Assembly: GCA_026986775.1 (NCBI GenBank) | Contig: JALSNX010000002.1 | Coordinates: 1 to 63,200, forward strand | Direction: 5' to 3' | Length of the DNA: 63,200 nt | Source: Caldifarciminota bacterium | GTDB taxonomy: Bacteria; Hydrothermota; Hydrothermia; UBA1063; CAJXJZ01 | Shown here: positions 25,650 to 43,012 of the stretch, piece after piece | Layout of the letters: each line of letters begins with the position of its first letter | How positions within the stretch are numbered: the stretch's first letter is position 1 | Made by a program: the position numbers and the translations under genes | The notes under the pieces: generated by a model | Seen by the model: only the letters and a program-made list of their open reading frames with translations | The model's database searches: none | Told to the model about the DNA's origin: nothing

Positions 25650-27065
25650 ATGAAACCGAAAGTATTGATTGTGGATGATGAAAAACTGTTTCTTGAGAGT
25701 CTGGTGGAACATTTGCGTCTTAAAAGGCAGGACATAGTATTCTACGCTACAAACTCTCCAAAAGAGGTCATTAAAATAATGCAGGATAAGGTCATTGATG
25801 TGGTGGTAACAGATATAAGGATGCCAGAAATGAATGGTCTTGAACTGTTGATGTATATAAGGAAGAATTTTCCACATATTAAAACTATTGTCATGACTGC
25901 TTATGGTAATGAGGAAATAGAAAATAAAGTTAAGAAGGATGGCAACACGAGATATATAACCAAACCATTTACAGCGGAATACCTTGAGTCTATACTGGAA
26001 GAAGTGATTTCTGATGCAATGGGATTTAAAGGTGTTTTAAGTGGTTTTTCTCTCATGGATATTTTGCAGCTTGCGCATATGAGTGGTTATTCCACCATAG
26101 TGTATGTGAAACTGGGGAAAAATTCGGGTAAAATATGGATAAAAGAAGGAGAAATAGTACACGCAACTGCTTCACTCGGTGGAAAAACCTTTGCTGGTAC
26201 GAGAGCACTTAATATGATGCTTCAGTGGAATCAGGGGGAGGTTCTTACCCTTCCCTATGAAGCCCCATTAAAAAGGACCATAACAGCAGATTTTGACTTT
26301 TTAATATTAAACGCCCTGAAGGAAGCAGATGAATCTTTGAAAGAAATGGAAGAGCAAGAACACAGAGAAAAGGAAGATATACTGGTTGTTGAGAAGGAGA
26401 ATATTAGAAGACTGGAGGAAAAATATAGGGAAAATCTATTTGGTCTGTGGATTATAAATAGAAACGGGAGATTAATACATGCAAAAATTTATAATGATTC
26501 AATTCACGAATTTAAGTCAGAAATCTTTAAGGAAATTAAAAATCAGTATGTTCAGTGGAAAAATGGAAAACTTCTCGTAAAAGAGCAGGTTATTGGTGAT
26601 AACAATGCCATTGTGTTTAAAGTACTGGTTTCAAGGGACAGATATCTTATATTTGCTGTTTTTTCAGGGGAAAATAATAGTATAAAAACTATAAAACAAG
26701 GAGGTGAGATTATGCCAGGGCAAAAAGAAATAGAAAAGGCACTGGAACTTCTTTCTGGAATAGAGGGTAGTGAAGGGGCAGCAGTGGTGAGTGATGAGGG
26801 TCTTGTATTGGATGCAAGGCTGGATAAAAAATACAATCCGGATAAAATAGGCGCGCTGATATCTGTTGCACTTGAAGCAGCGGAGAAAGTAACAAAAGAG
26901 GCTGGATGGGGAGAAGCTGACAATATGGTGGTGGAAGGTAATGAGGGCAAAATGGTCATATACAGTATTCCTATGGGCTTCATAGTATTGCTTGGCAAGA
27001 AGACTATGAATCTTGGTCTTGCAAGGATGCAGGTTGACCAAGCAGCAGAAATCCTCGGCGGTTAG
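25650..27065 (+). CDS. Receiver-PATAN (DUF4388)-roadblock/LC7 fusion protein
   Basis: The 471-residue protein has a receiver domain (Asp55 in VVVTDIRMPEMNG), a PATAN/DUF4388 domain (about residues 125-225, GFSLMDILQLAHMSG and GKIWIKEGEIVHA), a Glu/Lys-rich helix (about 225-250), a longin/roadblock-like segment (LFGLWIINRNGRLIHAK) and a C-terminal roadblock/LC7 domain (355-471). Such parts occur in polarity and small-GTPase control, as in MglB. No GTPase gene is adjacent. A perfect internal ribosome site before codon 355 suggests the last domain is also made separately. An ideal terminator follows. Confidence 0.8.
   Translation: MKPKVLIVDDEKLFLESLVEHLRLKRQDIVFYATNSPKEVIKIMQDKVIDVVVTDIRMPEMNGLELLMYIRKNFPHIKTIVMTAYGNEEIENKVKKDGNTRYITKPFTAEYLESILEEVISDAMGFKGVLSGFSLMDILQLAHMSGYSTIVYVKLGKNSGKIWIKEGEIVHATASLGGKTFAGTRALNMMLQWNQGEVLTLPYEAPLKRTITADFDFLILNALKEADESLKEMEEQEHREKEDILVVEKENIRRLEEKYRENLFGLWIINRNGRLIHAKIYNDSIHEFKSEIFKEIKNQYVQWKNGKLLVKEQVIGDNNAIVFKVLVSRDRYLIFAVFSGENNSIKTIKQGGEIMPGQKEIEKALELLSGIEGSEGAAVVSDEGLVLDARLDKKYNPDKIGALISVALEAAEKVTKEAGWGEADNMVVEGNEGKMVIYSIPMGFIVLLGKKTMNLGLARMQVDQAAEILGG
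26698..26707 (+). promoter_or_regulatory. Internal ribosome-binding site AAGGAGGTGA
   Basis: This full-length anti-SD complement lies inside the 25650-27065 frame, 4 bp before the ATG at 26712 (7 bp from the GGAGG core). In frame it reads as the residues QGGE. It decides the start of a possible separate roadblock protein. Confidence 0.7.
26712..27065 (+). CDS. Possible stand-alone roadblock/LC7 protein from an internal start
   Basis: Starting at ATG 26712, the same frame gives a 117-residue protein beginning MPGQKEIEKALELLSGIEGSEG. That is the length and form of a free MglB/roadblock protein. There is no stop between it and the upstream domains, so the same sequence is also the tail of the 471-residue fusion. 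Two products from one frame is an inference from the strong ribosome site. The alternative is a fusion formed by loss of a former stop codon, with the ribosome site as a relic. Confidence 0.55.
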   Translation: MPGQKEIEKALELLSGIEGSEGAAVVSDEGLVLDARLDKKYNPDKIGALISVALEAAEKVTKEAGWGEADNMVVEGNEGKMVIYSIPMGFIVLLGKKTMNLGLARMQVDQAAEILGG

Positions 27066-27096
27066 TTCTCTAAAAAAAGATGTTGTAAAATTACAG

Positions 27097-27122
27097 AAAG
27101 GGGCTTTGTCGCCCCTTTTTTC
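27097..27122 (+). terminator. Rho-independent terminator
   Basis: AAGGGGC, loop TTTGTC, GCCCCTT, then a T-run (27116-27121). It lies about 35 bp after the roadblock stop codon and separates this locus from the purM remnant. Confidence 0.9.
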
Positions 27123-27132
27123 TAAAGAGGTT

Positions 27133-27417
27133 TTATTTTATAACTGCCTTTCCTGCACCTTTCATAATATGCCCTATAACCCATGTATCAGAGCTTTTTT
27201 CAAGGATTTTATCTTTATAGTTTTCCGATACAATGATTACAAAACCTACTCCCATATTGAAAACCCTGAACATTTCATCATCAGGAATATTACCCATTTC
27301 CTGTAAATATTTAAACACCGCAGGTGTTCGCAGGTTTTCTCTGTATATCACCGCATCTACATTCTTATTAAGGGTTCTTCTGATATTCTCATAAAGCCCA
27401 CCTGTAATATAGGGTAG
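27133..27417 (-). pseudogene. purM: purM remnant: C-terminal third of phosphoribosylaminoimidazole synthetase
   Basis: Read on the minus strand, the frame gives YITGGLYENIRRTLNKNVD, then a segment ending EEMFRVFNMGVGF-like (DDEMFRVFNMGVGF), to a TAA at 27133. This corresponds to the last 90 or so residues of PurM. The N-terminal two thirds are missing; an in-frame stop lies just upstream near 27418. It differs at many positions from the intact purM at 34636-35628 (EEEMWRVFNMGIGF there) and lacks one Gly of TGGG, so it is not a recent copy. It marks the left edge of the lanthipeptide region. Confidence 0.85.
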
Positions 27418-27650
27418 CTATAGACATTTAATGAAAGTGTACCTCTTTTATTAACTATTAACAGTTAGTACCTCTTCAGAAAAATAGCATAGATAAAATG
27501 TTTAGCGCTGGCGAGAACAGGTATTATTTTACTACATTCTATCCGTGTAGCATAGTTGGTATTAATCTTTGCCTTGTTGAATTTCAGTTAGACCTATTTC
27601 AGGTAAACTGAATACATATCTTTTTAACCTTTTTAAGTAATAGCGAAAAC

Positions 27651-27682
27651 TTGACAGAATGTCCCCCACCCCCCCTTATAAT
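27651..27682 (+). promoter_or_regulatory. Promoter of the lanthipeptide cluster with 20-bp spacer and C-tract
   Basis: A perfect TTGACA (27651-27656) and a perfect TATAAT (27677-27682) are separated by 20 bp, 3 bp more than the other promoters in the window. The spacer contains C5-A-C7 (27663-27675). The long spacer should be weak unless a regulator twists the DNA or the C-run shortens. Confidence 0.6.
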
Positions 27683-27687
27683 TTTTA

Positions 27688-27703
27688 CACCCACATGTGG
27701 GTG
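27688..27703 (+). promoter_or_regulatory. Perfect 16-bp palindrome at the predicted transcription start
   Basis: CACCCACATGTGGGTG reads the same on both strands and begins 6 bp after the -10 box, so it covers about +1 to +15. This is a typical operator position for a dimeric repressor. No regulator gene lies in the cluster. Confidence 0.6.
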
Positions 27704-27728
27704 AAGCAGATTAAAAAGGAGATGTAAA

Positions 27729-27860
27729 ATGGATCGGCTGCTATCACTACAGCAACTAAACCCAAACAACAATACTATACAGGGGGAGGCGGGTAAAAGT
27801 AGCATGAGCTGGGCATTTTGCTCAACTCTGAGTATGGCCTGTACACCGCCAGACAAATAA
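27729..27860 (+). CDS. Class III lanthipeptide precursor 1 (labyrinthopeptin-like)
   Basis: This 43-residue ORF starts at ATG 27729, 7 bp after AAGGAG. The leader MDRLLSLQQLNPNN has the hydrophobic-x-LQ-x-hydrophobic motif that class III synthetases recognise. After GEAGK comes the core SSMSWAFCSTLSMACTPPDK. It holds one S-x-x-S-x-x-x-C unit (the labionin pattern) and one S-x-x-S-x-x-C unit directly after it. From memory, labyrinthopeptin A2 has the same two-unit plan. The LanKC gene follows 74 bp downstream, behind a strong hairpin. The assignment rests on the motif, the neighbours and the second matching peptide at 32109. Final ring pattern and leader cleavage site are unknown. Confidence 0.88.
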   Translation: MDRLLSLQQLNPNNNTIQGEAGKSSMSWAFCSTLSMACTPPDK

Positions 27861-27871
27861 GAACAATATGT

Positions 27872-27906
27872 GTCCCTTGCGGAGTTTTGATTTCTCCGCA
27901 GGGGAC
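27872..27906 (+). promoter_or_regulatory. Strong hairpin between precursor 1 and LanKC genes
   Basis: GTCCCTTGCGGAG (27872-27884) pairs with CTCCGCAGGGGAC (27894-27906), 13 pairs with one G-U, around a TTTTGATTT loop. No T-run follows. It is more likely a transcript-stabilising or partial-termination element that keeps precursor mRNA in excess over synthetase mRNA. Confidence 0.75.
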
Positions 27907-27934
27907 ATTAAAATAAAAAGGAGCAATTAATACA

Positions 27935-30577
27935 ATGTATCAATTTCTGGATTACTTTTATTACATACTTCTGGATGGATTGTTTTACAGAAATATAGAG
28001 GATTATGAGCCCGTAAAGAGTGTTTTTTACGATTATATCAGAGCAAATCTTCCAGAGGGCTGGCAAATAGAAAAAAATGGGCTCTGGTTTTATACATACC
28101 CCAAAAACATGCAACCACCATTGCAGGGCTGGAAAATTCATATTTCTGCAAGACAGAACAACGCCCTGGACATTTTAAAAGACGTATCTTCAATACTTTT
28201 TAAAGAAGGTGTTAGTTTTAAGTTCAGTCTTGATAAATTTATTTTTAGTCTTATCAACTCAAAGAACTGGCATAGAGGAGGAGCAGGGAAGTTTATTACA
28301 ATATATCCAGAGAATGAAGAGCAATTTAAAAGCCTTATAGAAAATTTATACCAGAAACTGCGGCATTACGAAGGTCCCTATATCCTCTCTGATGCACGAT
28401 ACAAAGATGCCAAGGTCTTGTATTACAGATATGGTGGATTTGCTCCGCGAACTATTCTGAGTGTGGAGGGCTATCATATACCCGTTATCAGCGACCCTGA
28501 AGGTAACATGGTTCCTGACATTAGAAACCCATTTTACACACCCCCTTCTTGGGTTAAAGACCCCTTTGGAAAAGAACCAAAGAAATATAAAGATATTCTG
28601 TTAAAGAACAGGTATAAAGTGCTTTCCTCCATTACATACAGTAATACTGGAGGAATTTATTTAGCCATAGATACCTTTAACAACAGTAAGGTGGTTATCA
28701 AAGAGGCCCGTTCATTTATAGATGTGGATGAAAGTGGCTTAACCGCTCAGGATGTTCTTAAAAAAGAATATGATATTCTTAAAATAATTGAGTATTCGCA
28801 CATTGCACCTCGTGCCCTGGATTTATTTAAGGAATGGGAACATCTGTTTCTGGTAGAAGAATTTATAGACGGGCAGGACTTAAGAGAGTTTGTGGTGGTA
28901 AACTCTCCATTGCTGAAGATAAACCCTGCCATCAGTGACTTTGAGAACTATATGGAAAATTTTAAAAAGATTTTTGTGAATTTAATACACTCTGTTAAAC
29001 TTTTACATCAACACGGAATAGTGTTTAGAGACCTATCGCACAATAATATTTTAGTCACCCGCGATTTAAATGTAAAACTCATTGACTTTGAAAGTGCATA
29101 CTTTAAGAAAGACAAACGCTGGCTCCATATTTTAACTCCGGGATTTGCGAGCAAAGAGGCATTGGAGGGAAAAAAACCTTCTGAAAAGGATGACTATTAT
29201 GCAATTGCCCAGAATATGGTTGCTTATCTTTTTCCTGTGAATGCGTTTTTTGATATATTTCCCCGTTGTAAAGAAAACTTCATTGAAGAGCTCTTAAAGG
29301 ACCTTCATTTCCCGTATGAGATAAAAAATATCATAAACTCTATGTCAGGTGAAAGTCAGTCAGATTTTGATATTGATGAGGTTGTGAGTAAAATTAAAAC
29401 TTTACACGCTGTAAAACCACGGAAAGGTGAAAGCAAAGAATACGATTTAAAAGGTATAATTAAAAAACTCGGAGCATTTATTGAAAAACATGCGGAAATT
29501 AAAGATAGTTACATATTCCCTCCTCCACCCCAGGGCCTTACTACAAATACTCTATCTTTAGCCTATGGTGATACCGGTGTATTGTTTTCACTCTTCTATT
29601 CCGGGCTAAAGTTGAACAGATTACACCTTGAAAAAATTATAAAAAGGGTTAAAGAGGGAATAGATGCACTGCCTCCTGGTTTTATGAACGGGCTTGCGGG
29701 CATAGGGTATGTTTTGAGTGAACTTGGATTTAAAGAGGATGGCATTGACTTATGTTTAAAATCTGCAAAACACCCACTTTTATACAATTCCCTTGACCTA
29801 TTTCAGGGGAGTGCCGGTGTATCCCATGCCCTTTTTAAACTTTATCTCTTAACAGGAGATGAAAATCTTCTGGAAAAAAGCGTTGAAATATTAAATAATA
29901 CTTTCAAAAAACTTGAAAATACTGGAGAGGGCTTGTATTTTGTGAATGCTGACAATGACGTCCACTATGGAATAATGCATGGCTCTTCATCCATAGCGTA
30001 TGTGTCAATGGAAATTTATAACAAAATAAAAGAACCAATTTTTAAGGAGTATGCAAGAAGACTTTTTGAATTTGACCTTTCAAAGAAAGTAGAGATAGAA
30101 AAGGGGGTATATTCATTTCCTCCATCTCAAAACAATAACAACACGGTTTTGCCTTATCTAAGATATGGAACAGCGGGGATAATAATAGTGCTTCTAAAGT
30201 TTTACAGGGCAGAAGAGGAGAGGGAGTTTGCAGAAGAATGGATAAATAAACTGCTTCTGGATTTAAACAGGAAATATACAATATTCCCCGGCTATTTTAA
30301 TGGTATGGCGGGAATAATAGACACACTTATCAGCGTTTATCAGACAATGCGCAGGAAAGAGATAAAAAATATAATCAATAAAGCCATACAAGGGCTAATG
30401 CTGTATCTTGTTGATAATAAAGACCATGCCTTTTTCCCTTCTGATGGACTTTTTAGAACAAGTGCTGATCTGGGAACCGGTGTATCCGGTATAATGAATG
30501 TTCTTTACAGATTTTCAAGGATTAAAATGCAAGAAAGTCCTTTATTTACAGGAGGCGTCCATGAAAAGGCACAATGA
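27935..30577 (+). CDS. lanKC: Class III lanthionine synthetase LanKC
   Basis: The 880-residue enzyme has the three-part class III layout. An N-terminal phospho-Ser/Thr lyase-like domain (about 1-220) carries GWKIHISARQNNA and KFITIYP. A Ser/Thr kinase domain (about 225-480) has Lys256, catalytic FRDLSHNN (Asp366, Asn371) and metal-binding DFE (Asp384). A LanC-like cyclase domain fills about 540-870. The LanC zinc ligands are absent: the expected Cys positions read YLRYGTAGI and GYFNGMAGI. That separates it from class IV LanL. It would phosphorylate core Ser/Thr, eliminate phosphate and form labionin or lanthionine rings. AAGGAG lies about 10 bp before the ATG. The exporter gene overlaps its end by 17 bp. 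Confidence 0.95.
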   Translation: MYQFLDYFYYILLDGLFYRNIEDYEPVKSVFYDYIRANLPEGWQIEKNGLWFYTYPKNMQPPLQGWKIHISARQNNALDILKDVSSILFKEGVSFKFSLDKFIFSLINSKNWHRGGAGKFITIYPENEEQFKSLIENLYQKLRHYEGPYILSDARYKDAKVLYYRYGGFAPRTILSVEGYHIPVISDPEGNMVPDIRNPFYTPPSWVKDPFGKEPKKYKDILLKNRYKVLSSITYSNTGGIYLAIDTFNNSKVVIKEARSFIDVDESGLTAQDVLKKEYDILKIIEYSHIAPRALDLFKEWEHLFLVEEFIDGQDLREFVVVNSPLLKINPAISDFENYMENFKKIFVNLIHSVKLLHQHGIVFRDLSHNNILVTRDLNVKLIDFESAYFKKDKRWLHILTPGFASKEALEGKKPSEKDDYYAIAQNMVAYLFPVNAFFDIFPRCKENFIEELLKDLHFPYEIKNIINSMSGESQSDFDIDEVVSKIKTLHAVKPRKGESKEYDLKGIIKKLGAFIEKHAEIKDSYIFPPPPQGLTTNTLSLAYGDTGVLFSLFYSGLKLNRLHLEKIIKRVKEGIDALPPGFMNGLAGIGYVLSELGFKEDGIDLCLKSAKHPLLYNSLDLFQGSAGVSHALFKLYLLTGDENLLEKSVEILNNTFKKLENTGEGLYFVNADNDVHYGIMHGSSSIAYVSMEIYNKIKEPIFKEYARRLFEFDLSKKVEIEKGVYSFPPSQNNNNTVLPYLRYGTAGIIIVLLKFYRAEEEREFAEEWINKLLLDLNRKYTIFPGYFNGMAGIIDTLISVYQTMRRKEIKNIINKAIQGLMLYLVDNKDHAFFPSDGLFRTSADLGTGVSGIMNVLYRFSRIKMQESPLFTGGVHEKAQ

Positions 30578-32105
30578 GTTTTTTGAATTCATAAAACCCA
30601 TAAAAGGGAAAATACTGGTCCTTGTTATAATGTCTTTTATAGTGGAATGCCTTACTCTGGCAAGTCCTTTTCTCTTGAAGAATATTGTGGATAAAGGCAT
30701 AATAGGAAAGGATACGAGATTATTTGCCTTGTTGGTGGCTTTGTTTTTTGTTATAACTTCTATCTGGAGATTGAGTGATTATCTTTATTCCCTTTATGCG
30801 AGAAAGGTTAAAAATGTATTTCTGGAAGGTGTAATAAAAACGAGGCTGCAAAAGTTTCTAAGATATTACCCAATTTTGAAATTAAAGGAAAAAGATACAG
30901 GATACTTTTTATCTCGTTTATATGAGGAACCTGCTCAACTGGCTGAAAGTTCTATTGACTTCATTATAAGTTCTGTAAATCTTATTATTTTCTCCATTAT
31001 CGGAGTCCTGTTTCTCCTTTACCTTTCAACCTATGCAACCGTTATCATGTTTATTGTCTCACCTGTTGTTTATTCTCTTGCCAGTAAGTTTTCATCCAAA
31101 ATAAAGCGCTATACAAAGGAAACAAAACATGAAGAGGCGACGGTAAGAGATAACATTTCCAATACAGTCCAATCTTTATTGACTATAAGGGTATTTAACC
31201 TTGAAAGGTTCGTGCTGGTTCATATAAAAGATGCTATGGAAAACTATTTAAGTAAGCTTTATAGCCTGTTTAAGACCGATACCCTTTATGAAACACTTAA
31301 TAGATACTTTTTTGGAATAACTGAAATGATTGTTATAACCGTTGGAGGATATCTTGTAATTATAAATAAAATGACAATAGGTTCACTTCTGGCATTTATG
31401 CAGACCTTTTACAGCGTCCTTTCATCTATAACACGCCTTGCAGGGAATTATTCACAGTTTGTGAGTTTGCAGGGGGCAGCAGAAAGAATAAAAGAGTTTG
31501 ACAATGAACTTGAACAAAAAGAACCACAAAATATACACACTGGCAGAGAATTACGCCTTAATAACATTTATTTCTCTTACAATGACAGAAAACCTGTTTT
31601 AGAGGACTTTTCACTTGCTGCCTCATTGGGAGAGAAGGTTCTCATAGTTGGTGAAAATGGTGCAGGTAAAAGCACATTGCTCACTCTTATGACAGGACTT
31701 GTTTCGCCTAAAAAGGGTACTTTGATAAAACCAGAGAGGGTTATCCTTATGCCAGAAGAGTTTTTAAATATCCCTCTGGAAAATTATAAGGTCGTTGATG
31801 AGCGTGGTATCTTTGAGGATATTATTAAAAGATTTGGTCTTTTGAAATACCTGCATAAAAAACCTCAGGAACTTTCAGCAGGCGAACGTAAAAAGTTTGC
31901 CATTGCCCTTTCTCTTGTAAAAAACGGCGATGCATACCTTTTTGACGAGCCACTTGCAAACATAGACCAGCACAGCAAAGATAAGGTAATGGATACGATT
32001 TTTGATTTAACGAAAGGCGCAATACTTGTGTGCGTAATGCATGAGGGAAAAAAATACTCAGAAAGGTTTGACAAAATAGTAAAGTTAAACAAAAATGGGA
32101 GGTAA
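30561..32105 (+). CDS. ABC exporter half-transporter (fused membrane and ATPase domains)
   Basis: The 514-residue protein has an N-terminal type I exporter membrane domain of about six helices and a C-terminal ATPase with Walker A GENGAGKSTLL, signature LSAGERKKFA, Walker B YLFDEPLANID and an H-loop His in CVMHEG. It probably works as a homodimer and exports the modified peptides across the inner membrane. There is no N-terminal C39 peptidase domain, so leader removal must occur elsewhere. ATG 30561 is chosen because AGGAGG (30550-30555) lies 5 bp upstream; the open frame runs back to 30498. Confidence 0.9.
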   Translation: MKRHNEFFEFIKPIKGKILVLVIMSFIVECLTLASPFLLKNIVDKGIIGKDTRLFALLVALFFVITSIWRLSDYLYSLYARKVKNVFLEGVIKTRLQKFLRYYPILKLKEKDTGYFLSRLYEEPAQLAESSIDFIISSVNLIIFSIIGVLFLLYLSTYATVIMFIVSPVVYSLASKFSSKIKRYTKETKHEEATVRDNISNTVQSLLTIRVFNLERFVLVHIKDAMENYLSKLYSLFKTDTLYETLNRYFFGITEMIVITVGGYLVIINKMTIGSLLAFMQTFYSVLSSITRLAGNYSQFVSLQGAAERIKEFDNELEQKEPQNIHTGRELRLNNIYFSYNDRKPVLEDFSLAASLGEKVLIVGENGAGKSTLLTLMTGLVSPKKGTLIKPERVILMPEEFLNIPLENYKVVDERGIFEDIIKRFGLLKYLHKKPQELSAGERKKFAIALSLVKNGDAYLFDEPLANIDQHSKDKVMDTIFDLTKGAILVCVMHEGKKYSERFDKIVKLNKNGR

Positions 32106-32108
32106 AAC

Positions 32109-32285
32109 ATGTGGTATGTTTTATCTTTGCAGACAATCAATGCGGAGAGCGTAAAAAAGGGGAACAAAGGTAAAAGTGCTATAAGTTATTCTTTTTGCTC
32201 TGCTCTGAGTCTTGGGTGTAATGGTAGGGGCAGAGAAAAGCACCATATAAATTTAAAATCTTCATTAAGTGTGAAGTGCAGATGA
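32109..32285 (+). CDS. Class III lanthipeptide precursor 2
   Basis: This 58-residue ORF starts at ATG 32109, 6 bp after GGGAGG and 3 bp after the exporter stop. The leader MWYVLSLQTINAES again has the L-x-LQ motif. After NKGK comes SAISYSFCSALSLGCNG, which aligns position by position with the core of precursor 1: S-x-x-S-aromatic-x-F-C-S-x-L-S-x-x-C. A further 24-residue tail, rich in basic residues, ends in KSSLSVKCR and holds a third S-x-x-S-x-x-C unit. The tail may be trimmed or may carry an extra ring. The outer-membrane protein gene begins 26 bp later. Confidence 0.88.
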   Translation: MWYVLSLQTINAESVKKGNKGKSAISYSFCSALSLGCNGRGREKHHINLKSSLSVKCR

Positions 32286-32311
32286 AATAGAAACGAAAAC
32301 AGGAGTTTAAA

Positions 32312-34555
32312 ATGGGTGTTTTTATGTTGTTTTTATTGTCTCTGAAAGTAACTATAAGAGGCGTTGTAAAGGATGAGTTGACACATAAACCATTGTCCTA
32401 TGCAACAGTTGTGCTCTTTGAGGACAAAACCAACAGAATAATTCAGGGCACACTTGCAGATGAGAAAGGTGTTTTTTTATTATCAAAAGTAAAGCCCGGT
32501 AAGTATTATTTAAAAGTGGATTTCATAGGATACGAGAGCAAAACAACAAAAACCTTTATTATAACTGAAAAGCCTAACCTTGATATGGGAACAATTTACC
32601 TTAAACCGATTGCTATAAAAATGGACACATTAACTGTTTTGGCAAAAAGACCCACTGTGGAGTTAAAAATAGACAGAACCCTGATAAGACCCCAGAACAA
32701 TATAATATCTTCAAATGGCACAGCAAAGGACCTGTTGAAAACTGCACCATCTGTATCCACTTCCCCCGATGGGAAAATCCTTGTAAGAAATAGCCGTAAT
32801 TTTAAGGTTCTTATAAATGGCAACCCCACGATGCTATCAAAAGATGAGGCCTTGTCCCAGATACCTGCATCACAAATAAAGTATATAGAGATCATAACAA
32901 ACCCTTCCTGTGAATACGACCCTGAAGCAAATGCCATTGTAAACATAGTCTTAAAAAAGAGCATATTTAAAAAGGGTGCTGAGATTTCAGGTGGAATAGG
33001 AACTTACTCAAATTATAATCTTGGAGTCCTTGGAAGTTTGTATGAAGACAAAAATAGCATTTACTCTTCTGTGAATTACAGGAGGCTGATACAGAATTTA
33101 TATTTACAAATGAAGATGATAAATCCTGCTTATACCATAATAACGGATACTGCACTTTTTAAAATGTCCCGAACCCCATTAACCTTACAGTTGGGTTCTT
33201 CTTTCAATGTTTTTAATAATACCGGGATTGGTCTTTTTGTAAATGGAGGGAGGAACAGGATTAAGGGTTATGGAGCAATGCACTACAAAATAGATACTTC
33301 TCAAATAGAGAACATATCAGACCTTTCATGGCTTTACCACTTCTGGGATGCATCTTTTAAATTGTCTTCCAGTCATTTAACATTTTCTACATTTTACGGA
33401 ATTCTAACTACACAAAAAGACCTGGATACTCCTTCAAAAGAAAACGATAGTATTACAGGAGGTCTAATTGCAAAGGGTGAAGGGAAAAGACAATTATTAC
33501 AGGTGGATATAAAGGGAAATACTATATTGAAAACGCTCAAGATTAGTTCTGGAGTTAGAATAACCTCAAAAAACTTTAGATCAAATACACAAACACTATT
33601 TTATGGCCAGAGTATTACCCATACAGACACTCTTGATTCACATAAAACCATATATGCAGGGTTTATTAAATTTAAAACTGCAGCCATGAAGAAATTCATC
33701 TTTTCAGGGGGAATAAGGGTGGAAAAGACACACAGAAGAATAAATACCTTTGAGTTCAAAAAATTTGACTATTTTCCGTCCATGTATTTAAGCTATAAGA
33801 TGTCTTTATACACCACATTTTCGCTTGGTTTTTCAAGAAGGATAGATAGGCCATCAGATTACGCTTTGAATCCTGTTGAAGTATGGGAAAACCCCCAATT
33901 AAAACACATTGGTAACCCGCAGCTTTTACCATCAATAACGGATGAACTGGAATTACGTTACAGTTTCCCCTTCGGTAAGAAAATTTACATTTCAGGTTCA
34001 GTTTATATGAATCGGGTTAAGGACGAACTTGGAAAATATGAAAGTGTGGATTCAGGCATCGTTATAAGTCGCATTGTAAACTTTAAACGGTCAAATTATT
34101 ATGGCTCTGAGGTTATGCTAAATGTTTCCGTATCCCCAAAATTAAACCTTGTGACTTCTTTTGATATAGAAAGATATATAAGGAGTGATTCTCTCGTAGG
34201 AACCCAGAAAGGTTTTGTTTATCACTTAAAGGGATTTTGCAATTACATGTTGCCCGTTGGAAACTTACAGTTGCAGGGTATGTATATAGGACCTTATCAG
34301 GAAACATTTGGTAGATTAGATGCAATGTATGGCATAAATTTAGGTTATAATCTAAAATGGCGCAATTTACAGCTGTCTTTAGTGGCAGGTGACATTCTGC
34401 ATTCAATGAAACTCGTATCTCGTTCTGATAATCTTCAAAAATTAGCATATCAATCCTATCCATCCATTACGGTTCAAATGACTTTGAATTTAGACCAGAA
34501 GGCCAGAATAGAAAGAAATCTGAATAATCAAGGTGAAGACTACAGAGCTATGTAA
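32312..34555 (+). CDS. TonB-receptor-like outer-membrane beta-barrel protein of the lanthipeptide cluster
   Basis: The 747-residue protein has a very short hydrophobic N-terminus (MGVFMLFLLSLKV), a carboxypeptidase-regulatory-like domain (about 12-100, VTIRGVVKDELTHKPLSYATV), a TonB-box-like MDTLTVLAKRP, a plug domain (TAKDLLKTAPSVSTSPDG, VLINGNPTML, IPASQIKYIEIITNPSCEYD) and a C-terminal barrel of alternating strands (about 210-747) of the OMP_b-brl_3 type. It is likely an outer-membrane gate for the finished peptide, or a receptor or immunity protein for it. AGGAG precedes the ATG. It is the last gene of the cluster. No TonB or ExbBD gene is nearby. Confidence 0.85.
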   Translation: MGVFMLFLLSLKVTIRGVVKDELTHKPLSYATVVLFEDKTNRIIQGTLADEKGVFLLSKVKPGKYYLKVDFIGYESKTTKTFIITEKPNLDMGTIYLKPIAIKMDTLTVLAKRPTVELKIDRTLIRPQNNIISSNGTAKDLLKTAPSVSTSPDGKILVRNSRNFKVLINGNPTMLSKDEALSQIPASQIKYIEIITNPSCEYDPEANAIVNIVLKKSIFKKGAEISGGIGTYSNYNLGVLGSLYEDKNSIYSSVNYRRLIQNLYLQMKMINPAYTIITDTALFKMSRTPLTLQLGSSFNVFNNTGIGLFVNGGRNRIKGYGAMHYKIDTSQIENISDLSWLYHFWDASFKLSSSHLTFSTFYGILTTQKDLDTPSKENDSITGGLIAKGEGKRQLLQVDIKGNTILKTLKISSGVRITSKNFRSNTQTLFYGQSITHTDTLDSHKTIYAGFIKFKTAAMKKFIFSGGIRVEKTHRRINTFEFKKFDYFPSMYLSYKMSLYTTFSLGFSRRIDRPSDYALNPVEVWENPQLKHIGNPQLLPSITDELELRYSFPFGKKIYISGSVYMNRVKDELGKYESVDSGIVISRIVNFKRSNYYGSEVMLNVSVSPKLNLVTSFDIERYIRSDSLVGTQKGFVYHLKGFCNYMLPVGNLQLQGMYIGPYQETFGRLDAMYGINLGYNLKWRNLQLSLVAGDILHSMKLVSRSDNLQKLAYQSYPSITVQMTLNLDQKARIERNLNNQGEDYRAM

Positions 34556-34635
34556 ATTTTGGTATTAAGCATCATTTAAAGAATAGAGTATGCTACCATG
34601 GAAGAATAAGATGTAAAATCGGAGACTTAATCGCC

Positions 34636-35628
34636 TTATTTCAGTATTACTCTTTTAGAACCTTTTTCTACCCTTCCAATGATATATCCGTCTGTTTCGG
34701 ATAAAATGCAATCTGCTTCTTTCTTGCCTGTGATTAAGATAAAGCCAATTCCCATATTAAAGACCCGCCACATTTCCTCTTCGGGTATTTTTCCTGCTTC
34801 CTTTAAATACCTAAAAACGGGCAGTATTTTTATTTTGTCCTTGTAAACCACTGCGTCAACCCTGCTGTTTAAGGTTCGCCTCAGGTTCTCCCCAATTCCA
34901 CCACCTGTTACGTGTGCTGCCCCGTGAACAATGCCTCTTTCAAAAAAGGGCAACAGTTCTTTTGTATATATTCTGGTGGGCGTAAGAAGTATATCCAGAA
35001 GCGTTTTTCCTTCTAATAAAACCTTTTTGGGGTCAATTTGATTTTTGTTTAATACTCTTCGCACAAGACTATAACCATTGGAATGAATGCCAGAGGAAGG
35101 AAAACCTATTATTACGTCACCCTCTTTTACGTTTTCTTTCTTTGTCAGATTATCTTTTGAAACTATACCTATAATAAACCCTGCCACGTCAAATTCATCC
35201 CCATTCAAAAGGTCAGGGAGTTCTGCGGTCTCACCTCCACCCAATTCTATACCCTCTCTCTCAAGAACACTTAAAAGGCCCTCCATGAATGGTTTTATAT
35301 AGGGGCTTTTTATATCTGAAATGGCTATGTAGTCAAGGAAAACAAGGGGTTTTGCTCCAAGCACGAGAATGTCGTTTACACACATTGCCACAAGGTCCTG
35401 AGCGAGGCCTTTTACGTTATTATATTGAATGGCAAGTTTTATTTTTGTTCCAATGCCATCTGTTGAGTAAACAAGATACGGGTCATTGTACTTTTTTAGT
35501 ATATCTCCTAAAGGGAGAGTAAGGGCAAAATCAGGATAAAAAGTTTCGGATTTTTTGAGTTTGCTTTTTATGAATCTGACAAACTCGTTGCCCCCATCTA
35601 TATCAACGCCGGAATCTTTATAAAGCAT
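34636..35628 (-). CDS. purM: Phosphoribosylformylglycinamidine cyclo-ligase (AIR synthetase)
   Basis: The 330-residue enzyme closes FGAM to AIR in purine synthesis. Family marks are DFALTLPLGD, VYSTDGIGTKIKLA, the active-site segments DLVAMCVNDILVLGAKPLVFLDY, GGETAELP, SSGIHSNGYSLVR and AAHVTGGGIGENLRRTL. Its ATG overlaps the sufS stop by 11 bp on the minus strand. A second, truncated and divergent purM end lies 7.2 kb away at 27133-27417. The lanthipeptide cluster fills the space between them. No other purine genes are present. Confidence 0.95.
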   Translation of the reverse strand: MLYKDSGVDIDGGNEFVRFIKSKLKKSETFYPDFALTLPLGDILKKYNDPYLVYSTDGIGTKIKLAIQYNNVKGLAQDLVAMCVNDILVLGAKPLVFLDYIAISDIKSPYIKPFMEGLLSVLEREGIELGGGETAELPDLLNGDEFDVAGFIIGIVSKDNLTKKENVKEGDVIIGFPSSGIHSNGYSLVRRVLNKNQIDPKKVLLEGKTLLDILLTPTRIYTKELLPFFERGIVHGAAHVTGGGIGENLRRTLNSRVDAVVYKDKIKILPVFRYLKEAGKIPEEEMWRVFNMGIGFILITGKKEADCILSETDGYIIGRVEKGSKRVILK

Positions 35629-36856
35629 TGGATTTTAAACTGCTTAAAACATCAATAAAACTGTCTATTTCCTCTTTTGTGTTGTAGATATAAAAACTTG
35701 CCCTTGCAGTGCCTCTGACACCTAAAAAATCATTGTGAAGCGGCTGGGCACAGTGACAGCCTGTTCTTATGGCTATACCGTGCTTATCAAGTATGGATGC
35801 AACTACCTCCGGGCTTAAGGGTTTTTCGTTTTTCTGCATTACATTGAAAGATACAACCCCGATTCTCTCAGAAGGCCCGTATACTCTGATAAAATTAAGT
35901 TCTTTTAACCTTGAAAGTGCATAAGTTGCCAGTTTTCTTTCGTGTTTTTCCACATTATCCATGCCGATTTTTTCAAGATAACCCACCGCAGCACCAAGCC
36001 CTATACCACCTGCAATATTGGATGTTCCTGCTTCATACTTCCACGGCAACTTATTGAATGTGACCTTATCCAGTGTAACACGCCATATCATATCACCTCC
36101 GCGAAGGAATGGCTCAAGTTCTTCTAAAATTTCTTTCTTTCCGTAGAGAACCCCAATTCCCGTGGGTCCCAGCATCTTATGGCCTGAGAAGGCGAAAAAA
36201 TCACAGTCAATGTCTTTTACGTCAATTTTGATATGTGGTGCAGACTGGGCCCCGTCCACCACAAAAATGGCACCTTTTCTGTGTGCAAGTTCTCCTATTT
36301 TCCTGACATCGTTCACGGTGCCAAGAACATTGGAAGCGTGCATGATAGACACTACCTTTATTTTCTCTTCCTTATTCAGTATTTCCTCAAGGTGATTTAA
36401 GTTAAGGCTTCCATCCTCATTGAGGTTTACAACGTGCAGTTTTATTTTGAATTTGTCCCTCAATAACTGCCATGGTACCATGTTTGAGTGATGTTCCATG
36501 AGTGAAATAACAACTCCATCACCCTCTTTTAATTTTCCGCTTAAATACAGAGAGAATACCACAAGGTTGATGCTCTCCGTGGTGTTTCTTGTAAATATTA
36601 CTTCTTCCATTGATGAGGCATTGATAAATTGAGCAACCTTTTTGTGTGCTTTCTCGTATGCCTCTGTTGCTTCCATGGAAAGAGTATGGATACCCCTGTG
36701 TATGTTGGCGTTATAATGAAGATAGAATTGTGATACTGCATCCACAACCTGTTTGGGCCTGAGAGAGGTTGCAGCGTTGTCAAAATATATAAGCCTCTCT
36801 CCATTTATTTTTCTCTCAAGCTGGGGAAAGTCTCTTCTTATTTTTTGCGTATCCAT
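35618..36856 (-). CDS. sufS: Cysteine desulfurase, SufS type (group II)
   Basis: The 412-residue PLP enzyme takes sulfur from cysteine for Fe-S cluster assembly. The PLP lysine is Lys227 in FSGHKMLGPTG. The persulfide cysteine is Cys369 in RTGCHCAQP. The N-terminus RRDFPQLERKINGERLIYFDNAATS is typical. No sufBCDU genes lie beside it; purM is cotranscribed downstream. The abundance of Fe-S proteins in the window gives it clear work. Confidence 0.95.
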   Translation of the reverse strand: MDTQKIRRDFPQLERKINGERLIYFDNAATSLRPKQVVDAVSQFYLHYNANIHRGIHTLSMEATEAYEKAHKKVAQFINASSMEEVIFTRNTTESINLVVFSLYLSGKLKEGDGVVISLMEHHSNMVPWQLLRDKFKIKLHVVNLNEDGSLNLNHLEEILNKEEKIKVVSIMHASNVLGTVNDVRKIGELAHRKGAIFVVDGAQSAPHIKIDVKDIDCDFFAFSGHKMLGPTGIGVLYGKKEILEELEPFLRGGDMIWRVTLDKVTFNKLPWKYEAGTSNIAGGIGLGAAVGYLEKIGMDNVEKHERKLATYALSRLKELNFIRVYGPSERIGVVSFNVMQKNEKPLSPEVVASILDKHGIAIRTGCHCAQPLHNDFLGVRGTARASFYIYNTKEEIDSFIDVLSSLKSNAL

Positions 36857-36896
36857 GGTTAAATTTTATTCTCAATATCGCGGATGGGCAAACCTA

Positions 36897-38963
36897 TCAG
36901 TAGAAAATTTTACCCTCTTTCTCTAAATTTTTACCTTTTAATCTGTAAAAATATACTCCTCTTACAGGAGGCGTGAGCCTGATTATATTTACTTTTTTGC
37001 CTGCTACGCGACGGTTTAGCGTATAAATATTTCTCCCTGCGGCATCCCATATATGTAATGAAATTCGTCCATCTTCAGAGGGATAAATTTTAAACACTAT
37101 CCCATGTGGAGTTATATTTACCACAACATTCTGGTATTCTTTAGGCTTTACTTTTTCCTGTATTTTTGAAGGAGGATTATTGGCTAAAAATAAATAATAT
37201 TTTGCAGGTGCGTGTGGAGGGGAAAATGATACGTTGGGGGGAGAGGCACCATCATAAGCAACGATATAAAACTTTATAGTATCAATTAACGGAAAACTAC
37301 ATCGTGGTATTATGGCATAATAAATATCATTCGTATCGGCTACAGAAAGCATGCTAACTTTTATCCATTCGGAATCTTCAAGATTTCTTTGATAAAACAG
37401 AAATGCGCTATCTATCCCGGATGGAATATCCTTTATTTCTGCAACCACTTTAAAAGGCCCAGCAAAATCCGTGTCGTGGAGCTGACTTATACAATTTATG
37501 GAAGGATATGTTTTTACAAAAATGTAAGAAGTATCCTCCCACGGGAACATCTGTACACCCATTCTGTCATCACCTTTCACAACGATCCTGTGCACTCCTT
37601 CACTGAGGAATCTTGAAAAATTCCATAAGGTGCAGGGTGTTCTACTGACAAAAGTGTCATCAAAATAAATCTCGTAATTTATATTACCATAGCGACTAAC
37701 AGGTCCCTGCCATATGATATCAAAATTTACATCTGATGTATTAAGCAAAAGTGTATCATCAGGGTATGTAATTTTAAAAGAAGGCCCCAAAAAGAATCCG
37801 GGGTCAGGTTTGATGAATCGTGTCCCTATGTGTCCATCTATGTTATCACCATATACGGCAAAGACATAACCTCCGTCTGACATCTGTATTAAATTCGTGG
37901 GTAATATAAAATCTGCACGAGGAGAAGAAGGAAAGGCATATCTAAAATTGTATTTTATGGATAAGTCAGAGGAAATACTGAAGATGTTTGCATAGACTGT
38001 GTAATTGTCCTGATAAGAAGATAAAATAATGTATCTTTCATCATTTATAGTCCTTAACATTGCTATCTCCTCCGGCCATTTAAAATAATCAAAAAAGTTA
38101 GTGCGTATGGTATCTCTTGTGTATAAATCCATGACAATAATCATCGTTTTAACTGATGACCATGATGTATCTGCAATTCCGCCTACCAGAACAATATTTC
38201 CATTTGTTACTGTGGCCGCAGAACTAAAGAAACTATTAGTATAACCATTATCTTCATAGGGGAGACTGTTGAAAACGTGTGTCCATATCGTATCACCCTC
38301 GGAATTCACATTAATTATGGCTGCTTTACTATATTCCCAGTTGTATCCAGAATCTCGTTCACCTATGAGAAGAAAATTATTGTAAACAGTTTTGTATATT
38401 TTATAAAAGTACCAAGTGGCATCGTATCCAGGATCCCATGAAGAAGGAGGTACTTCTTTAATCGCAAGCAGGTCTCCGTCAGGACTGATGACAATAACAT
38501 GACCATATTTGGTAATCATTATTATATTATTCTCAGAAGTCAAAGCGGCATCTTTAATATAGTCTCCCTGAATAGAATCCACATAATGTGCCCAGAGTAA
38601 ATTTCCTGAAGAGTCTATTGCCCCATAGGCTGGATAAAGATAAGAACTATTAGAATCCAATAACATGCCTCCAGCCCATATAAAGTTTCTATTGGGTAAC
38701 TCTACCAGAGTTAGAGCAAAGTCCATATAGTAAGCAGTATCTATCTTTACATTCTTAAGATTCCCGTATCTGTCCATACGAACAAAAAGAGTGTGGAGAG
38801 GAGTGTAGCCTATACCGGCAATATCACCGTTAAGTGTATGAATGATTTTCCGAACTTTTAATTTTGTACTGGAAGAATATACAGACGTATACCAGGAATG
38901 TTCTCCAAATTTAGTGGACTTTGATATATCATTAAAAGACAAAAGCAAAAATATAAAAAACAT
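36897..38963 (-). CDS. Secreted repeat protein with C-terminal sorting domain
   Basis: The 688-residue protein starts with a very short hydrophobic signal (MFFIFLLLSFNDIS) preceded by AGGAGG. The body has repeated strands such as GDIAGIGYTPLHTLFVRMDRYGNL, IIMITKYGHVIVISPDGDLL and GNIVLVGGI, which fit a propeller of the type seen in delta-60 or WD-like repeat proteins. An Ig-like segment lies near residues 400-580. The last 70 or so residues (ISLHIWDAAGRNIYTLNRRV, PPVRGVYFYRLKG) are a Por-type sorting domain. The ligand is unknown. Confidence 0.75.
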   Translation of the reverse strand: MFFIFLLLSFNDISKSTKFGEHSWYTSVYSSSTKLKVRKIIHTLNGDIAGIGYTPLHTLFVRMDRYGNLKNVKIDTAYYMDFALTLVELPNRNFIWAGGMLLDSNSSYLYPAYGAIDSSGNLLWAHYVDSIQGDYIKDAALTSENNIIMITKYGHVIVISPDGDLLAIKEVPPSSWDPGYDATWYFYKIYKTVYNNFLLIGERDSGYNWEYSKAAIINVNSEGDTIWTHVFNSLPYEDNGYTNSFFSSAATVTNGNIVLVGGIADTSWSSVKTMIIVMDLYTRDTIRTNFFDYFKWPEEIAMLRTINDERYIILSSYQDNYTVYANIFSISSDLSIKYNFRYAFPSSPRADFILPTNLIQMSDGGYVFAVYGDNIDGHIGTRFIKPDPGFFLGPSFKITYPDDTLLLNTSDVNFDIIWQGPVSRYGNINYEIYFDDTFVSRTPCTLWNFSRFLSEGVHRIVVKGDDRMGVQMFPWEDTSYIFVKTYPSINCISQLHDTDFAGPFKVVAEIKDIPSGIDSAFLFYQRNLEDSEWIKVSMLSVADTNDIYYAIIPRCSFPLIDTIKFYIVAYDGASPPNVSFSPPHAPAKYYLFLANNPPSKIQEKVKPKEYQNVVVNITPHGIVFKIYPSEDGRISLHIWDAAGRNIYTLNRRVAGKKVNIIRLTPPVRGVYFYRLKGKNLEKEGKIFY

Positions 38964-39435: not shown

Positions 39436-41226
39436 ATGTTGGCTGGTACCTTGTTTTTTGCAATTATCCTGTTTTCACCTGCTTCAAAATTACTGGGAAG
39501 AGTGTACTTCAGTGAATCCAGCAGTGCCGTGGATTCAACACAGCTGGGAACTCTGAAAAAAGTTGCACAGATACTTAAAAGAGATTCCACAATAATAGTG
39601 GATTGTCTTGGGTATACTGATCAATCAGGTTCTTTAAGAACCAACAGAGTTATGGCGAGAAAAAGGGCAGAGGCAGTAAAATGGGTATTAACACGGAACT
39701 TCGGGATATCTCCGGAAAGGATTTTTGTTATAGCGTATGGCCCTGACTTAAATGCATCTTCTCCTGATTCAGCGAGGAGGACAGATATAGTGATTCACAA
39801 ACCCGATGCTATACTGACTGATTATCAGCACAGGGTTTTAATTCAACCTTTTTATTATCCAATGCTCTGGTTAAGGCCTCATGGTGAGGATCCTCTTTAT
39901 GGTTATTACAGGGTGAAAACAGGTAAGCTATCGCTTGCAAGAGTTAGTTTTCCAGAAAAAGGAACACTTGTACTCGGAAGCGATGCTCTTCTTATAATTT
40001 ACGGAAAATTGTACAGAAAAAAGAAGCATATAGATAATGACATAGACCTTCTTACGGGAAAGTTGATGACATTGTTGCAGGGAAAAGCACAAACTCGTGA
40101 ACTTGCTATAAAGACTCCAGGTGCTAAGATTAAACTGAATGCTTCTCGCAGCAAAATTGGAGTTGACAGAAAAAAGACCACTCTCGTCTCAATATTTGAA
40201 GGATATGCTGAAGTTATGGCCAGAGGCAAAAAGGTAAGCTTGAAGAGTGGGGAAGGTACCTATGTCATATATGGGAAAAAACCTTCGCCTCCCCATAGGC
40301 TTCCAAAGGCACCAGAGATTATACTCCCTGACTCAGGGGATACCGTTTACGCTGCAAATTCTCTTAAAATCAGGTGGCATGGAAGTACCCAAAAGTACAG
40401 GCTTCAAATATTCAAAAAGGATACCTCATTTGAAATTATTTTAGATACCACTGTTGCTGACAGTGAGTATAGACTACACCCACCAGCGTATAATACATAT
40501 TATATGGTTAAAATGGCTTCAATTGACTCTACAGGCCTTGAAAGTGAGACTTCTTTGCCCTGTGTATTTTATGTTGCTACACAGAGGGATACAACTCCGC
40601 CGCAGATTTTTGGAGTAGAAATAAAGAAACATGGATACGCCAGGTACCTTGTTAAAATTAAGAGTGAGCCGGGCGTTACGGTATATGTAGGAAATCATGT
40701 TGTAGAAACAGGAAATGACAGTACTGTGGAGGTTGTATTGAAAACAACAGAGAAGGTTATACCTCTTAAAATTAAGGATGAATACGGAAATACCGCACAT
40801 GATACGTTGTTAATCCAATATAGGCGTTCACACATACTTTCATTGGGAGCAGGCATTCTAAAAGTGCATGATGACAAAAGAGATTCATATTTATCCATGA
40901 TGGAACTTAATTACAGGTTTAATATTTATAAATCGCTTTTTTTAGGCGGGAAAATTGAATATATGTTGAACAGTGAGTCAAAATCAGGAATACTTTCTTT
41001 AAGCTATATTCCTGTAACAGGCAGTGTGTTCCCGGAATTTCTATTTTCCTATGGATTGGTTATTGATAATGGCCATTATTATATAGGAGGACCTGGAGTT
41101 GCCATTCATGTGCATGTCTTTCACAGGTTCTCTCTCTCTCCCGCTTTAAATTTTTATTCTTCCTGGAATAGTTCAAATAGGGGGCTTTCTACTGCCAGTC
41201 TCTCTTTTTCCTATCTTATCAGATGA
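39436..41226 (+). CDS. OmpA-like/FecR-domain outer-membrane barrel protein
   Basis: The 596-residue protein has a short signal (MLAGTLFFAIILFSPAS), an OmpA-C-like peptidoglycan-binding domain (about 20-115, VDCLGYTDQSGSLRTNRVMARKRAEAV), a FecR-like domain (about 150-285, KTPGAKIKLNASRSKIGVDRKKTTLVSIFEGYAEV), Ig-like segments (290-460) and a C-terminal barrel of about eight strands ending FSYLIR. The order of domains is unusual. AAGGAG lies before the ATG, and the cyclase gene overlaps the stop as ATGA, which implies linked function. Role unknown; an envelope sensor or scaffold is possible. Confidence 0.8.
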   Translation: MLAGTLFFAIILFSPASKLLGRVYFSESSSAVDSTQLGTLKKVAQILKRDSTIIVDCLGYTDQSGSLRTNRVMARKRAEAVKWVLTRNFGISPERIFVIAYGPDLNASSPDSARRTDIVIHKPDAILTDYQHRVLIQPFYYPMLWLRPHGEDPLYGYYRVKTGKLSLARVSFPEKGTLVLGSDALLIIYGKLYRKKKHIDNDIDLLTGKLMTLLQGKAQTRELAIKTPGAKIKLNASRSKIGVDRKKTTLVSIFEGYAEVMARGKKVSLKSGEGTYVIYGKKPSPPHRLPKAPEIILPDSGDTVYAANSLKIRWHGSTQKYRLQIFKKDTSFEIILDTTVADSEYRLHPPAYNTYYMVKMASIDSTGLESETSLPCVFYVATQRDTTPPQIFGVEIKKHGYARYLVKIKSEPGVTVYVGNHVVETGNDSTVEVVLKTTEKVIPLKIKDEYGNTAHDTLLIQYRRSHILSLGAGILKVHDDKRDSYLSMMELNYRFNIYKSLFLGGKIEYMLNSESKSGILSLSYIPVTGSVFPEFLFSYGLVIDNGHYYIGGPGVAIHVHVFHRFSLSPALNFYSSWNSSNRGLSTASLSFSYLIR

Positions 41227-42950: not shown

Positions 42951-43012
42951 TATACCTTGTTCATATTTTCACTTTCTTGATTATACGCTGAAATTCCTTC
43001 ATCATTTTACAT

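What the first reader, a model, noticed from the sequence alone, without database searches (positions are those of the whole stretch)
27729..32285. Two unannotated labyrinthopeptin-like class III lanthipeptide precursors flank a LanKC-exporter pair
Seen in the sequence: two short ORFs (43 and 58 codons) with good ribosome sites. Leaders carry LLSLQQL and VLSLQTI. Cores align as S-x-x-S-aromatic-x-F-C-S-x-L-S-x-x-C. Established: class III leaders use a hydrophobic-LQ motif, and S-x-x-S-x-x-x-C gives labionin. Labyrinthopeptin A2, from memory, has the same two-unit plan. Inference: the products are two-ring peptides from a diderm lineage far from the Actinobacteria, where such clusters are best known. 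The second ring lacks one residue in its C-terminal spacer, so its size should differ from labyrinthopeptin.
Basis: partly seen in the sequence, partly recalled or inferred. Interest (0 to 1): 0.93.

Follow-up and report, generated by a model that had tools for sequence, protein, structure and literature searches.

The report
Lanthipeptide operon with its own receptor
A little-known bacterium of the WOR-3 group carries a compact operon that appears to make two ring-bearing peptides, one with three ring motifs instead of the usual one or two, export them, and build a matching outer-membrane receptor, a gene pairing I found no report of for this peptide class.

Summary
ORFs A1 (27729-27860) and A2 (32109-32285) are there, with good ribosome sites, LxLQ leaders and the stated Ser/Cys pattern. 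The enzyme between them is a class III LanKC by HMM score and conserved active-site residues; the zinc ligands are absent. They form a five-gene operon: A1, LanKC, ABC exporter, A2, outer-membrane protein (to 34555). A distant WOR-3 genome (G037) has the same five genes in the same order. There A2 is 63% identical while LanKC is only 44%, and every ring Ser and Cys is kept. A sister genome shows 10 synonymous but 1 nonsynonymous change in A2. (1) A2 has a third conserved ring motif, SSLSVKC, after a basic linker; none of the other roughly 80 LanKC-linked precursors surveyed has three. (2) The fifth gene is a TonB-dependent-receptor-like barrel (AlphaFold pLDDT 83; Foldseek top hits Cir, BtuB). 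Its closest relatives in the phylum all sit in peptide-modification loci. Sister genome G031 lost A1-LanKC-ABC but keeps A2 and the receptor. "Labyrinthopeptin-like" is only partly right: there are no CC pairs, and LanKC is already widespread in other diderms. Labionin formation, peptide function and transport direction are untested.

The parts
27689..27702 (.). perfect 14-bp palindrome ACCCACATGTGGGT upstream of A1, possible operator; by eye a TTGACA (27651) and TATAAT (27677) lie upstream with a non-ideal 20-nt spacer
   Evidence: only copy in the window (0.17 expected by chance with up to 2 mismatches); function not tested
27729..27860 (+). A1, precursor peptide with two ring motifs (SSMSWAFC, STLSMAC); leader LLSLQQL
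   Evidence: (NF038154 20.1 bits, below cut-off 22)
27870..27908 (+). strong hairpin between A1 and LanKC; a different sequence in the same place in G037; probable attenuator or mRNA-stabilising hairpin
   Evidence: -28.3 kcal/mol, z -6.05; G037 -34.9 kcal/mol, z -8.97
27935..30577 (+). LanKC, class III lanthionine synthetase (lyase, kinase, zinc-less cyclase), 880 aa
30561..32105 (+). ABC exporter (membrane and ATPase domains, no C39 peptidase), 514 aa; overlaps the LanKC end by 17 nt
32109..32285 (+). A2, precursor peptide with three ring motifs (SAISYSFC, SALSLGC, SSLSVKC) joined by a basic linker
   Evidence: (NF038154 24.6 bits, above cut-off 22)
32312..34555 (+). TonB-dependent-receptor-like outer-membrane protein: CarboxypepD_reg domain, plug, about 22-strand barrel, 747 aa
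   Evidence: neighbours

Best explanation
Positions 27729-34555 are one operon of a class III lanthipeptide system in a WOR-3 bacterium. LanKC binds the LxLQ leaders of A1 and A2, phosphorylates and eliminates core serines, and closes lanthionine or labionin rings at the SxxSx{2,3}C motifs: two in A1, three in A2. The ABC exporter moves the products across the inner membrane. The leader is cut by a protease encoded elsewhere. The last gene is a TonB-dependent outer-membrane receptor dedicated to the product, most likely recapturing or sensing the mature peptide (or a cargo bound to it) at the cell surface. Shown by computation: gene content and order, class III enzyme features, constraint on the peptides, fold of the receptor, linkage of this receptor subfamily to peptide-modification loci. 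Inferred: ring chemistry, export, leader removal, that the peptide is the receptor's ligand, and the direction of transport.
For: LanKC scores 716.7 bits on the class III model, cut-off 575. The lyase residues that PMC10604976 lists for labionin-forming enzymes (ThurKC K65, H67, K94, K108, K117, D152, R163, R191) are identical in the alignment, the DFE kinase motif is kept, and the zinc-ligand positions hold R743, F788 and N789. The same five-gene order is found in G037, with A2 more conserved (63%) than LanKC (44%), ABC (39%) or receptor (37%). Within A2, rings 1-2 keep 13 of 16 and the third-motif tail 10 of 11 residues, the linker 2 of 9. A2 shows 1 nonsynonymous against 10 synonymous changes between G037 and G031. 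The fifth gene models as plug plus barrel, with top structural matches Cir, PhuR, BtuB, PirA, OprC, and the genome encodes three TonB_C proteins. The five closest receptor homologues in the phylum (including the window's) all lie in peptide-maturase loci (two LanKC, two radical-SAM/SPASM with ABC exporters, one A2-only deletion), against 0 of 15 more distant homologues. G031 lost A1-LanKC-ABC but keeps A2 and the receptor.
Against: No peptide has been seen. The receptor's ligand is unknown, and receptor-like barrels of this family are common in the phylum (132 of 147 genomes). The TonB-box-like stretch DTLTVLA of the window protein is not kept in its relatives. Three of the six forward-type WOR-3 LanKC operons carry a CBM9/DUF5916-type protein in the same slot instead of a receptor, which could point to a generic export or surface role. 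No protease is encoded in the operon.
Confidence: 0.72

Rival explanations
1. The outer-membrane protein is the exit route: ABC exporter and barrel together carry the peptide out of a diderm cell, and the protein does not act as a receptor.
For: An outer-membrane-type gene follows or flanks the exporter in all six LanKC-ABC operons of the forward type, of two unrelated families (OMP_b-brl_3 in G000, G037, G028; CBM9/DUF5916-type in G023, G059, G050), and no membrane-fusion protein is encoded. Oxalobacteraceae class III loci carry ABC/HlyD-like/TolC-type genes downstream, so an exit route is a recurring need.
Against: The window protein has a complete plug and a receptor fold; proteins of that fold import. 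An exporter would be useless in G031, which lost LanKC and ABC yet keeps it under constraint.
Confidence: 0.22
2. The outer-membrane gene is a bystander that happens to be co-transcribed and has nothing to do with the peptides.
For: The family is abundant in WOR-3 genomes.
Against: It is kept in the same slot in G000 and G037 although LanKC is only 44% identical between them; the closest paralogues sit in radical-SAM peptide loci; 0 of 15 distant homologues do so (Fisher p = 0.001 with 4 of 5 counted as linked).
Confidence: 0.1
3. The third SxxSxxC motif of A2 is not part of the product but an unmodified follower or recognition tail removed on maturation; the mature A2 has two rings.
For: It is separated from rings 1-2 by a basic, poorly conserved linker with possible dibasic cleavage sites.
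Against: The tail is the best kept stretch of A2 (10 of 11 residues), all of its ring Ser and Cys are kept, and it resembles ring 2 (SALSLGC / SSLSVKC), as if duplicated.
Confidence: 0.3
4. The ORFs are chance reading frames near a LanKC.
For: They are short.
Against: Orthologues in the same positions, strong purifying selection on A2, profile E-values of 1e-22 to 1e-25.
Confidence: 0.01

Closest known systems
Class III lanthipeptides (LanKC; SapB/RamS, AmfS, labyrinthopeptin, curvopeptin, ThurA)
   Same: LanKC with lyase, kinase and zinc-less cyclase; LxLQ leaders; SxxSx{2,5}C cores; ABC exporter; no clustered leader protease
   Different: WOR-3 host; one precursor with three ring motifs; rings 1 and 2 directly abutting (C-S) without CC; a receptor-type outer-membrane gene in the operon
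Labyrinthopeptins (Actinomadura; features from memory)
   Same: two ring motifs per core, more than one precursor
   Different: no CC pair for the disulfide; second ring spacer is two residues; A2 has a third motif
itf peptide cluster of Bacteroides thetaiotaomicron (radical SAM, YcaO, ABC/C39, TonB-dependent transporter ItfF; PMC11002830)
   Same: modified peptide plus ABC exporter plus TonB-dependent transporter in one locus
   Different: different maturases; exporter there carries a C39 peptidase; not a lanthipeptide
Methanobactin clusters (mbn; TonB-dependent MbnT, PMC9601215, PMC3621798)
   Same: secreted modified peptide with a dedicated TonB-dependent transporter that takes the metal-loaded peptide back
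   Different: no mbn-type enzymes here; metal binding untested
Lasso peptide loci with TonB-dependent receptor and isopeptidase (Sphingomonas, Asticcacaulis; PMC11006600)
   Same: modified peptide locus with a TonB-dependent receptor
   Different: no lasso enzymes, no isopeptidase; there the receptor genes are divergently transcribed
Noursin (class III, copper-binding; PMC10206099)
   Same: class III synthetase product with labionin; shows that this class can bind metal
   Different: Hbt crosslink and host differ; NorKC-type cyclase not tested for here

Membership tests
Class III lanthipeptide synthetase LanKC | score over the curated class III model and below the class IV cut-off | tested here: met
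   NF038151 716.7 bits (cut-off 575); NF038150 LanL 438.2 bits (cut-off 650)
Class III lanthipeptide synthetase LanKC | lyase active-site residues conserved in labionin-forming enzymes | tested here: met
   Lys65, His67, Lys94, Lys108, Lys117, Asp152, Arg163, Arg191 of ThurKC identical in the alignment with 8sao_B (residue list PMC10604976)
Class III lanthipeptide synthetase LanKC | cyclase without the Cys/Cys/His zinc ligands | tested here: met
   positions aligned to ThurKC Ser726, Phe770, Asp771 are R743, F788, N789
Class III lanthipeptide precursor | LxLQ leader motif | tested here: met
   LLSLQQL and VLSLQTI; LxLQ and VxxLQ as class III leader motifs in PMC7268733 and PMC11251773
Class III lanthipeptide precursor | SxxSx{2,5}C core motif | tested here: met
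   two in A1, three in A2; definition in PMC11251773
Class III lanthipeptide precursor | score over a curated precursor model | tested here: inconclusive
   A2 24.6 bits on NF038154 (cut-off 22); A1 20.1 bits, just below
Class III lanthipeptide product | lanthionine or labionin present in the product | not testable with these tools
   needs mass spectrometry or NMR
Labyrinthopeptin group | paired Cys (CC) for the disulfide as well as two labionin motifs (from memory) | tested here: not met
   no CC in A1 or A2; three motifs in A2
TonB-dependent receptor/transporter | plug domain inside a large C-terminal barrel | tested here: met
   AlphaFold pLDDT 83.3, pTM 0.74; top Foldseek hits Cir, PhuR, BtuB, E about 1e-20; Pfam Plug itself only E = 0.002, 19 bits, under its cut-off of 23.9
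TonB-dependent receptor/transporter | TonB box in the N-terminal flexible segment | tested here: inconclusive
   DTLTVLA at about residues 105-111 in a low-confidence segment, not kept in relatives
TonB-dependent receptor/transporter | TonB encoded in the genome | tested here: met
   three TonB_C matches over cut-off
Methanobactin system | mbn-type maturation enzymes in the locus | tested here: not met
   operon holds only LanKC, ABC, receptor and the two precursors

The most novel reading that the evidence does not exclude
The operon is a peptide-recapture system: a three-ring class III lanthipeptide (A2) that is secreted, picks up a cargo such as a metal, or acts as a signal, and is taken back or read by its own TonB-dependent receptor. 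Sister strain G031 would then be a receiver that has lost production. This would be the first class III lanthipeptide with a dedicated receptor, and part of a wider WOR-3 design in which different peptide maturases share one receptor subfamily.
Probability: 0.25. Interest if true: 0.82.

Novelty: new variant of a known kind. Interest (0 to 1): 0.57.

Why it matters
Class III lanthipeptides are known almost entirely from Gram-positive bacteria, and how a two-membraned cell handles them is open. This locus gives a small, self-contained and testable case: one enzyme, two precursors, one exporter and a candidate cognate receptor. Evolution has kept the peptide sequence more strictly than the enzyme. 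It adds a three-motif precursor to a class in which the roughly 80 others surveyed here have one or two. It also links a receptor subfamily to two unrelated peptide-modification chemistries in one uncultured phylum.

Tried and rejected
Chance ORFs: rejected by orthologues and the substitution pattern. Class IV LanL: rejected by model scores. Plasmid origin: no similar DNA in the plasmid collection. Recent integration bringing its own purM end: the full purM (34636-35628) is 77-79% identical to G003 along both halves, so it is resident; the 90-codon purM piece at 27133-27408 is a diverged remnant of unclear origin. A G+C anomaly of the operon: none seen. Single origin of LanKC in WOR-3: the quick tree needs at least four changes on starred branches, so several acquisitions or exchanges are likely, but the tree is a fast one. 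Structure of the CBM9/DUF5916-type alternative: model too weak to call a barrel (pLDDT 61, pTM 0.39), although Pfam places three of nine family members in DUF5916. Rfam on 27000-36900: nothing. Defence libraries: only generic kinase and ATPase matches. Sigma-70 and terminator scans: no more sites than shuffled sequence.

Full report
OBSERVATION. The two short ORFs are present exactly as described: A1 at 27729-27860 and A2 at 32109-32285, both on the + strand, on either side of LanKC (27935-30577) and an ABC exporter (30561-32105). Both have a purine-rich ribosome site just upstream. The window is a whole contig (C2) of a 2.18-Mb, 98% complete genome with a single LanKC and a single LanC-like domain. 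The window is therefore taken to be WOR-3. The contig is not a binning accident: sufS, purM and the genes at 39436-44168 match the same-genus genome G003 in order (51-87% for most, 41% for one), and the response regulator on the left matches G002 at 58%.

THE ENZYME. LanKC scores 716.7 bits on the class III model (cut-off 575) and only 438 on the class IV model (cut-off 650). Its best solved relatives are class III LanKC structures (8sao and others). All eight lyase residues named as conserved in labionin-forming enzymes (PMC10604976) are identical by that alignment. The kinase carries DFE. The three zinc-ligand positions are Arg, Phe and Asn, so the cyclase is of the metal-free class III type. 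ThurKC Asp771, which that paper implicates in cyclisation, is Asn here.

THE PEPTIDES. A search of the phylum (all 147 genomes held) found RamC_N-type LanKC in only eight genomes, none of them other members of the window's genus or order. G037, same class but another family, has the same five genes in the same order. A2 is 63% identical between the two (36 of 57), against 44% for LanKC, 39% for ABC, 37% for the outer-membrane protein and 44% for A1. Every ring Ser and Cys of the A1 and A2 motifs is kept. The peptide is thus held more tightly than the enzyme. Between G037 and its sister G031, A2 has 10 synonymous and 1 nonsynonymous differences.

A THIRD RING MOTIF. After the two abutting rings A2 continues with a basic linker and then INLKSSLSVKC (window) or INLKSSLSIKC (G037). 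This holds a third SxxSxxC motif. Conservation by region is 13 of 16 (rings 1-2), 2 of 9 (linker) and 10 of 11 (tail). In a mechanical survey of LxLQ-leader short ORFs around 77 LanKC loci from GTDB genomes and 7 WOR-3 loci, 54 had one motif, 26 had two, and the only one with three was the G037 A2; the window A2 was scored separately and also has three.

OPERON ANATOMY. Spacing is tight (LanKC and ABC overlap; ABC to A2 3 nt; A2 to the next gene 26 nt). Between A1 and LanKC lies a strong hairpin in both genomes, of unrelated sequence (z -6.05 and -8.97), consistent with an attenuator that keeps precursor mRNA high (inference). A perfect 14-bp palindrome lies at 27689-27702. No protease is encoded and the exporter lacks a C39 domain, so the leader must be removed by something else; the genome has one M16 peptidase, and M16 pairs do this job in a Bacillus class III system (PMC10604976).

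THE FIFTH GENE. 32312-34555 encodes an OMP_b-brl_3 protein with a CarboxypepD_reg domain. AlphaFold with a 15-sequence alignment gives pLDDT 83 and pTM 0.74: small N-terminal domain, plug, then a barrel of about 22 strands. The best structural matches are TonB-dependent receptors: Cir, PhuR, BtuB, PirA, OprC. The genome encodes three TonB_C proteins. A TonB-box-like DTLTVLA lies in the flexible linker but is not kept in relatives, so this is only suggestive.

LINKAGE. All six WOR-3 operons with LanKC followed by ABC have an outer-membrane-type gene at the exporter: OMP_b-brl_3 in G000, G037 and G028, and a CBM9/DUF5916-type protein in G023, G059 and G050 (in G050 one full copy upstream and a contig-end fragment downstream). 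G032 and G034, with another LanKC lineage and a divergent exporter, lack it. The five closest homologues of the window receptor in the phylum, itself included, are: the window, G037, G031 (A2 only), a second locus of the window's own genome (C27, L183) and G002 (L184). The last two are radical-SAM/SPASM loci with ABC exporters and homologous Cys-rich short ORFs. Of 15 more distant homologues (25-35% by local alignment), none has such a neighbour within the stretches read, some of which are short contigs. Fisher's exact test for 4 of 5 against 0 of 15 gives p = 0.001. In the LanKC tree the WOR-3 enzymes fall in several places (at least four changes, quick tree), so pairing with an outer-membrane gene has probably arisen more than once.

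A NATURAL DELETION. G031 matches G037 at 92-95% on both sides but lacks A1, LanKC and ABC (about 4.7 kb). A remnant of the exporter's 3' end stays, and a short shared TTCTTA lies at the junction. A2 and the receptor remain intact and constrained (dN/dS about 0.02 and 0.07). G031 is 89% complete and no LanKC was found elsewhere in it. A strain that keeps a receptor but has lost production fits a receptor role better than an export role. The deletion may also simply be recent.

HOW IT MOST LIKELY WORKS. LanKC modifies A1 and A2; the ABC protein exports them; the receptor recaptures or senses the product. TonB-dependent transporters in modified-peptide loci are known for methanobactin (PMC9601215), lasso peptides (PMC11006600) and the Bacteroides itf cluster (PMC11002830), and one class III product, noursin, binds copper (PMC10206099). 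I found no paper that pairs LanKC with a TonB-dependent protein: the one paper holding all three search terms mentions them in separate sections, and none joins WOR-3 with lanthipeptides. The library is limited to open-licence papers.

VERDICT. A real, conserved class III lanthipeptide operon; the family is known, so this is a new variant and not a new category. The interest lies in the three-motif precursor and the receptor pairing.

Noticed in passing
window 27133-27408 (-): A 90-codon diverged piece of a purM 3' end (47% to the resident PurM, 58% to the PurM of same-genus G001) lies just left of the operon, while the complete resident purM (34636-35628) lies just right of it.
   Followed up: partly
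L183 8952-16943 (own genome contig C27): A second peptide-modification locus in the same genome: radical-SAM/SPASM gene split over three ORFs, CBM9-type protein, ABC exporter, Cys-rich 57-aa ORF (11255-11428) and a receptor 34% identical to the window's. G002 (L184) has a homologous Cys-rich ORF (5567-5740) beside radical-SAM, ABC and receptor genes.
   Followed up: partly
L182 (G031) against L039 (G037): G031 has lost A1-LanKC-ABC in a 4.7-kb deletion but keeps A2 and the receptor under purifying selection.
   Followed up: yes
L042 5464-8143 (G050): LanKC is split into a lyase-kinase ORF (511 aa) and a separate cyclase ORF (386 aa), overlapping by about 11 nt; a Caldilineaceae MAG (L091 9926-12715) shows a similar split.
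   Followed up: no
L039 9020-9210 (-) (G037): Three related palindrome-like copies of GTGTAAAC-N-GTTTACAC upstream of A1, candidate operators; the window has a different palindrome in the comparable place.
   Followed up: no
L038 11701-12939 and L042 3754-5001: Sigma-54 activators without receiver domains sit upstream of the precursor gene in the LanKC loci of G059 and G050.
   Followed up: no
L055, L056, L058 (Oxalobacteraceae): LanKC-ABC is followed by two FtsX-like genes, an HlyD-like gene, an ABC ATPase and (Pfam-checked in L056) a TolC-type OEP gene: a different way to cross the outer membrane.
   Followed up: partly
L253 641-4353 (G039) and L254 5842-11100 (G020): ABC exporter directly followed by a CBM9/DUF5916-type protein, with a weak radical-SAM match beside it in G020; suggests a recurring WOR-3 layout of maturase, exporter and surface protein.
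   Followed up: no
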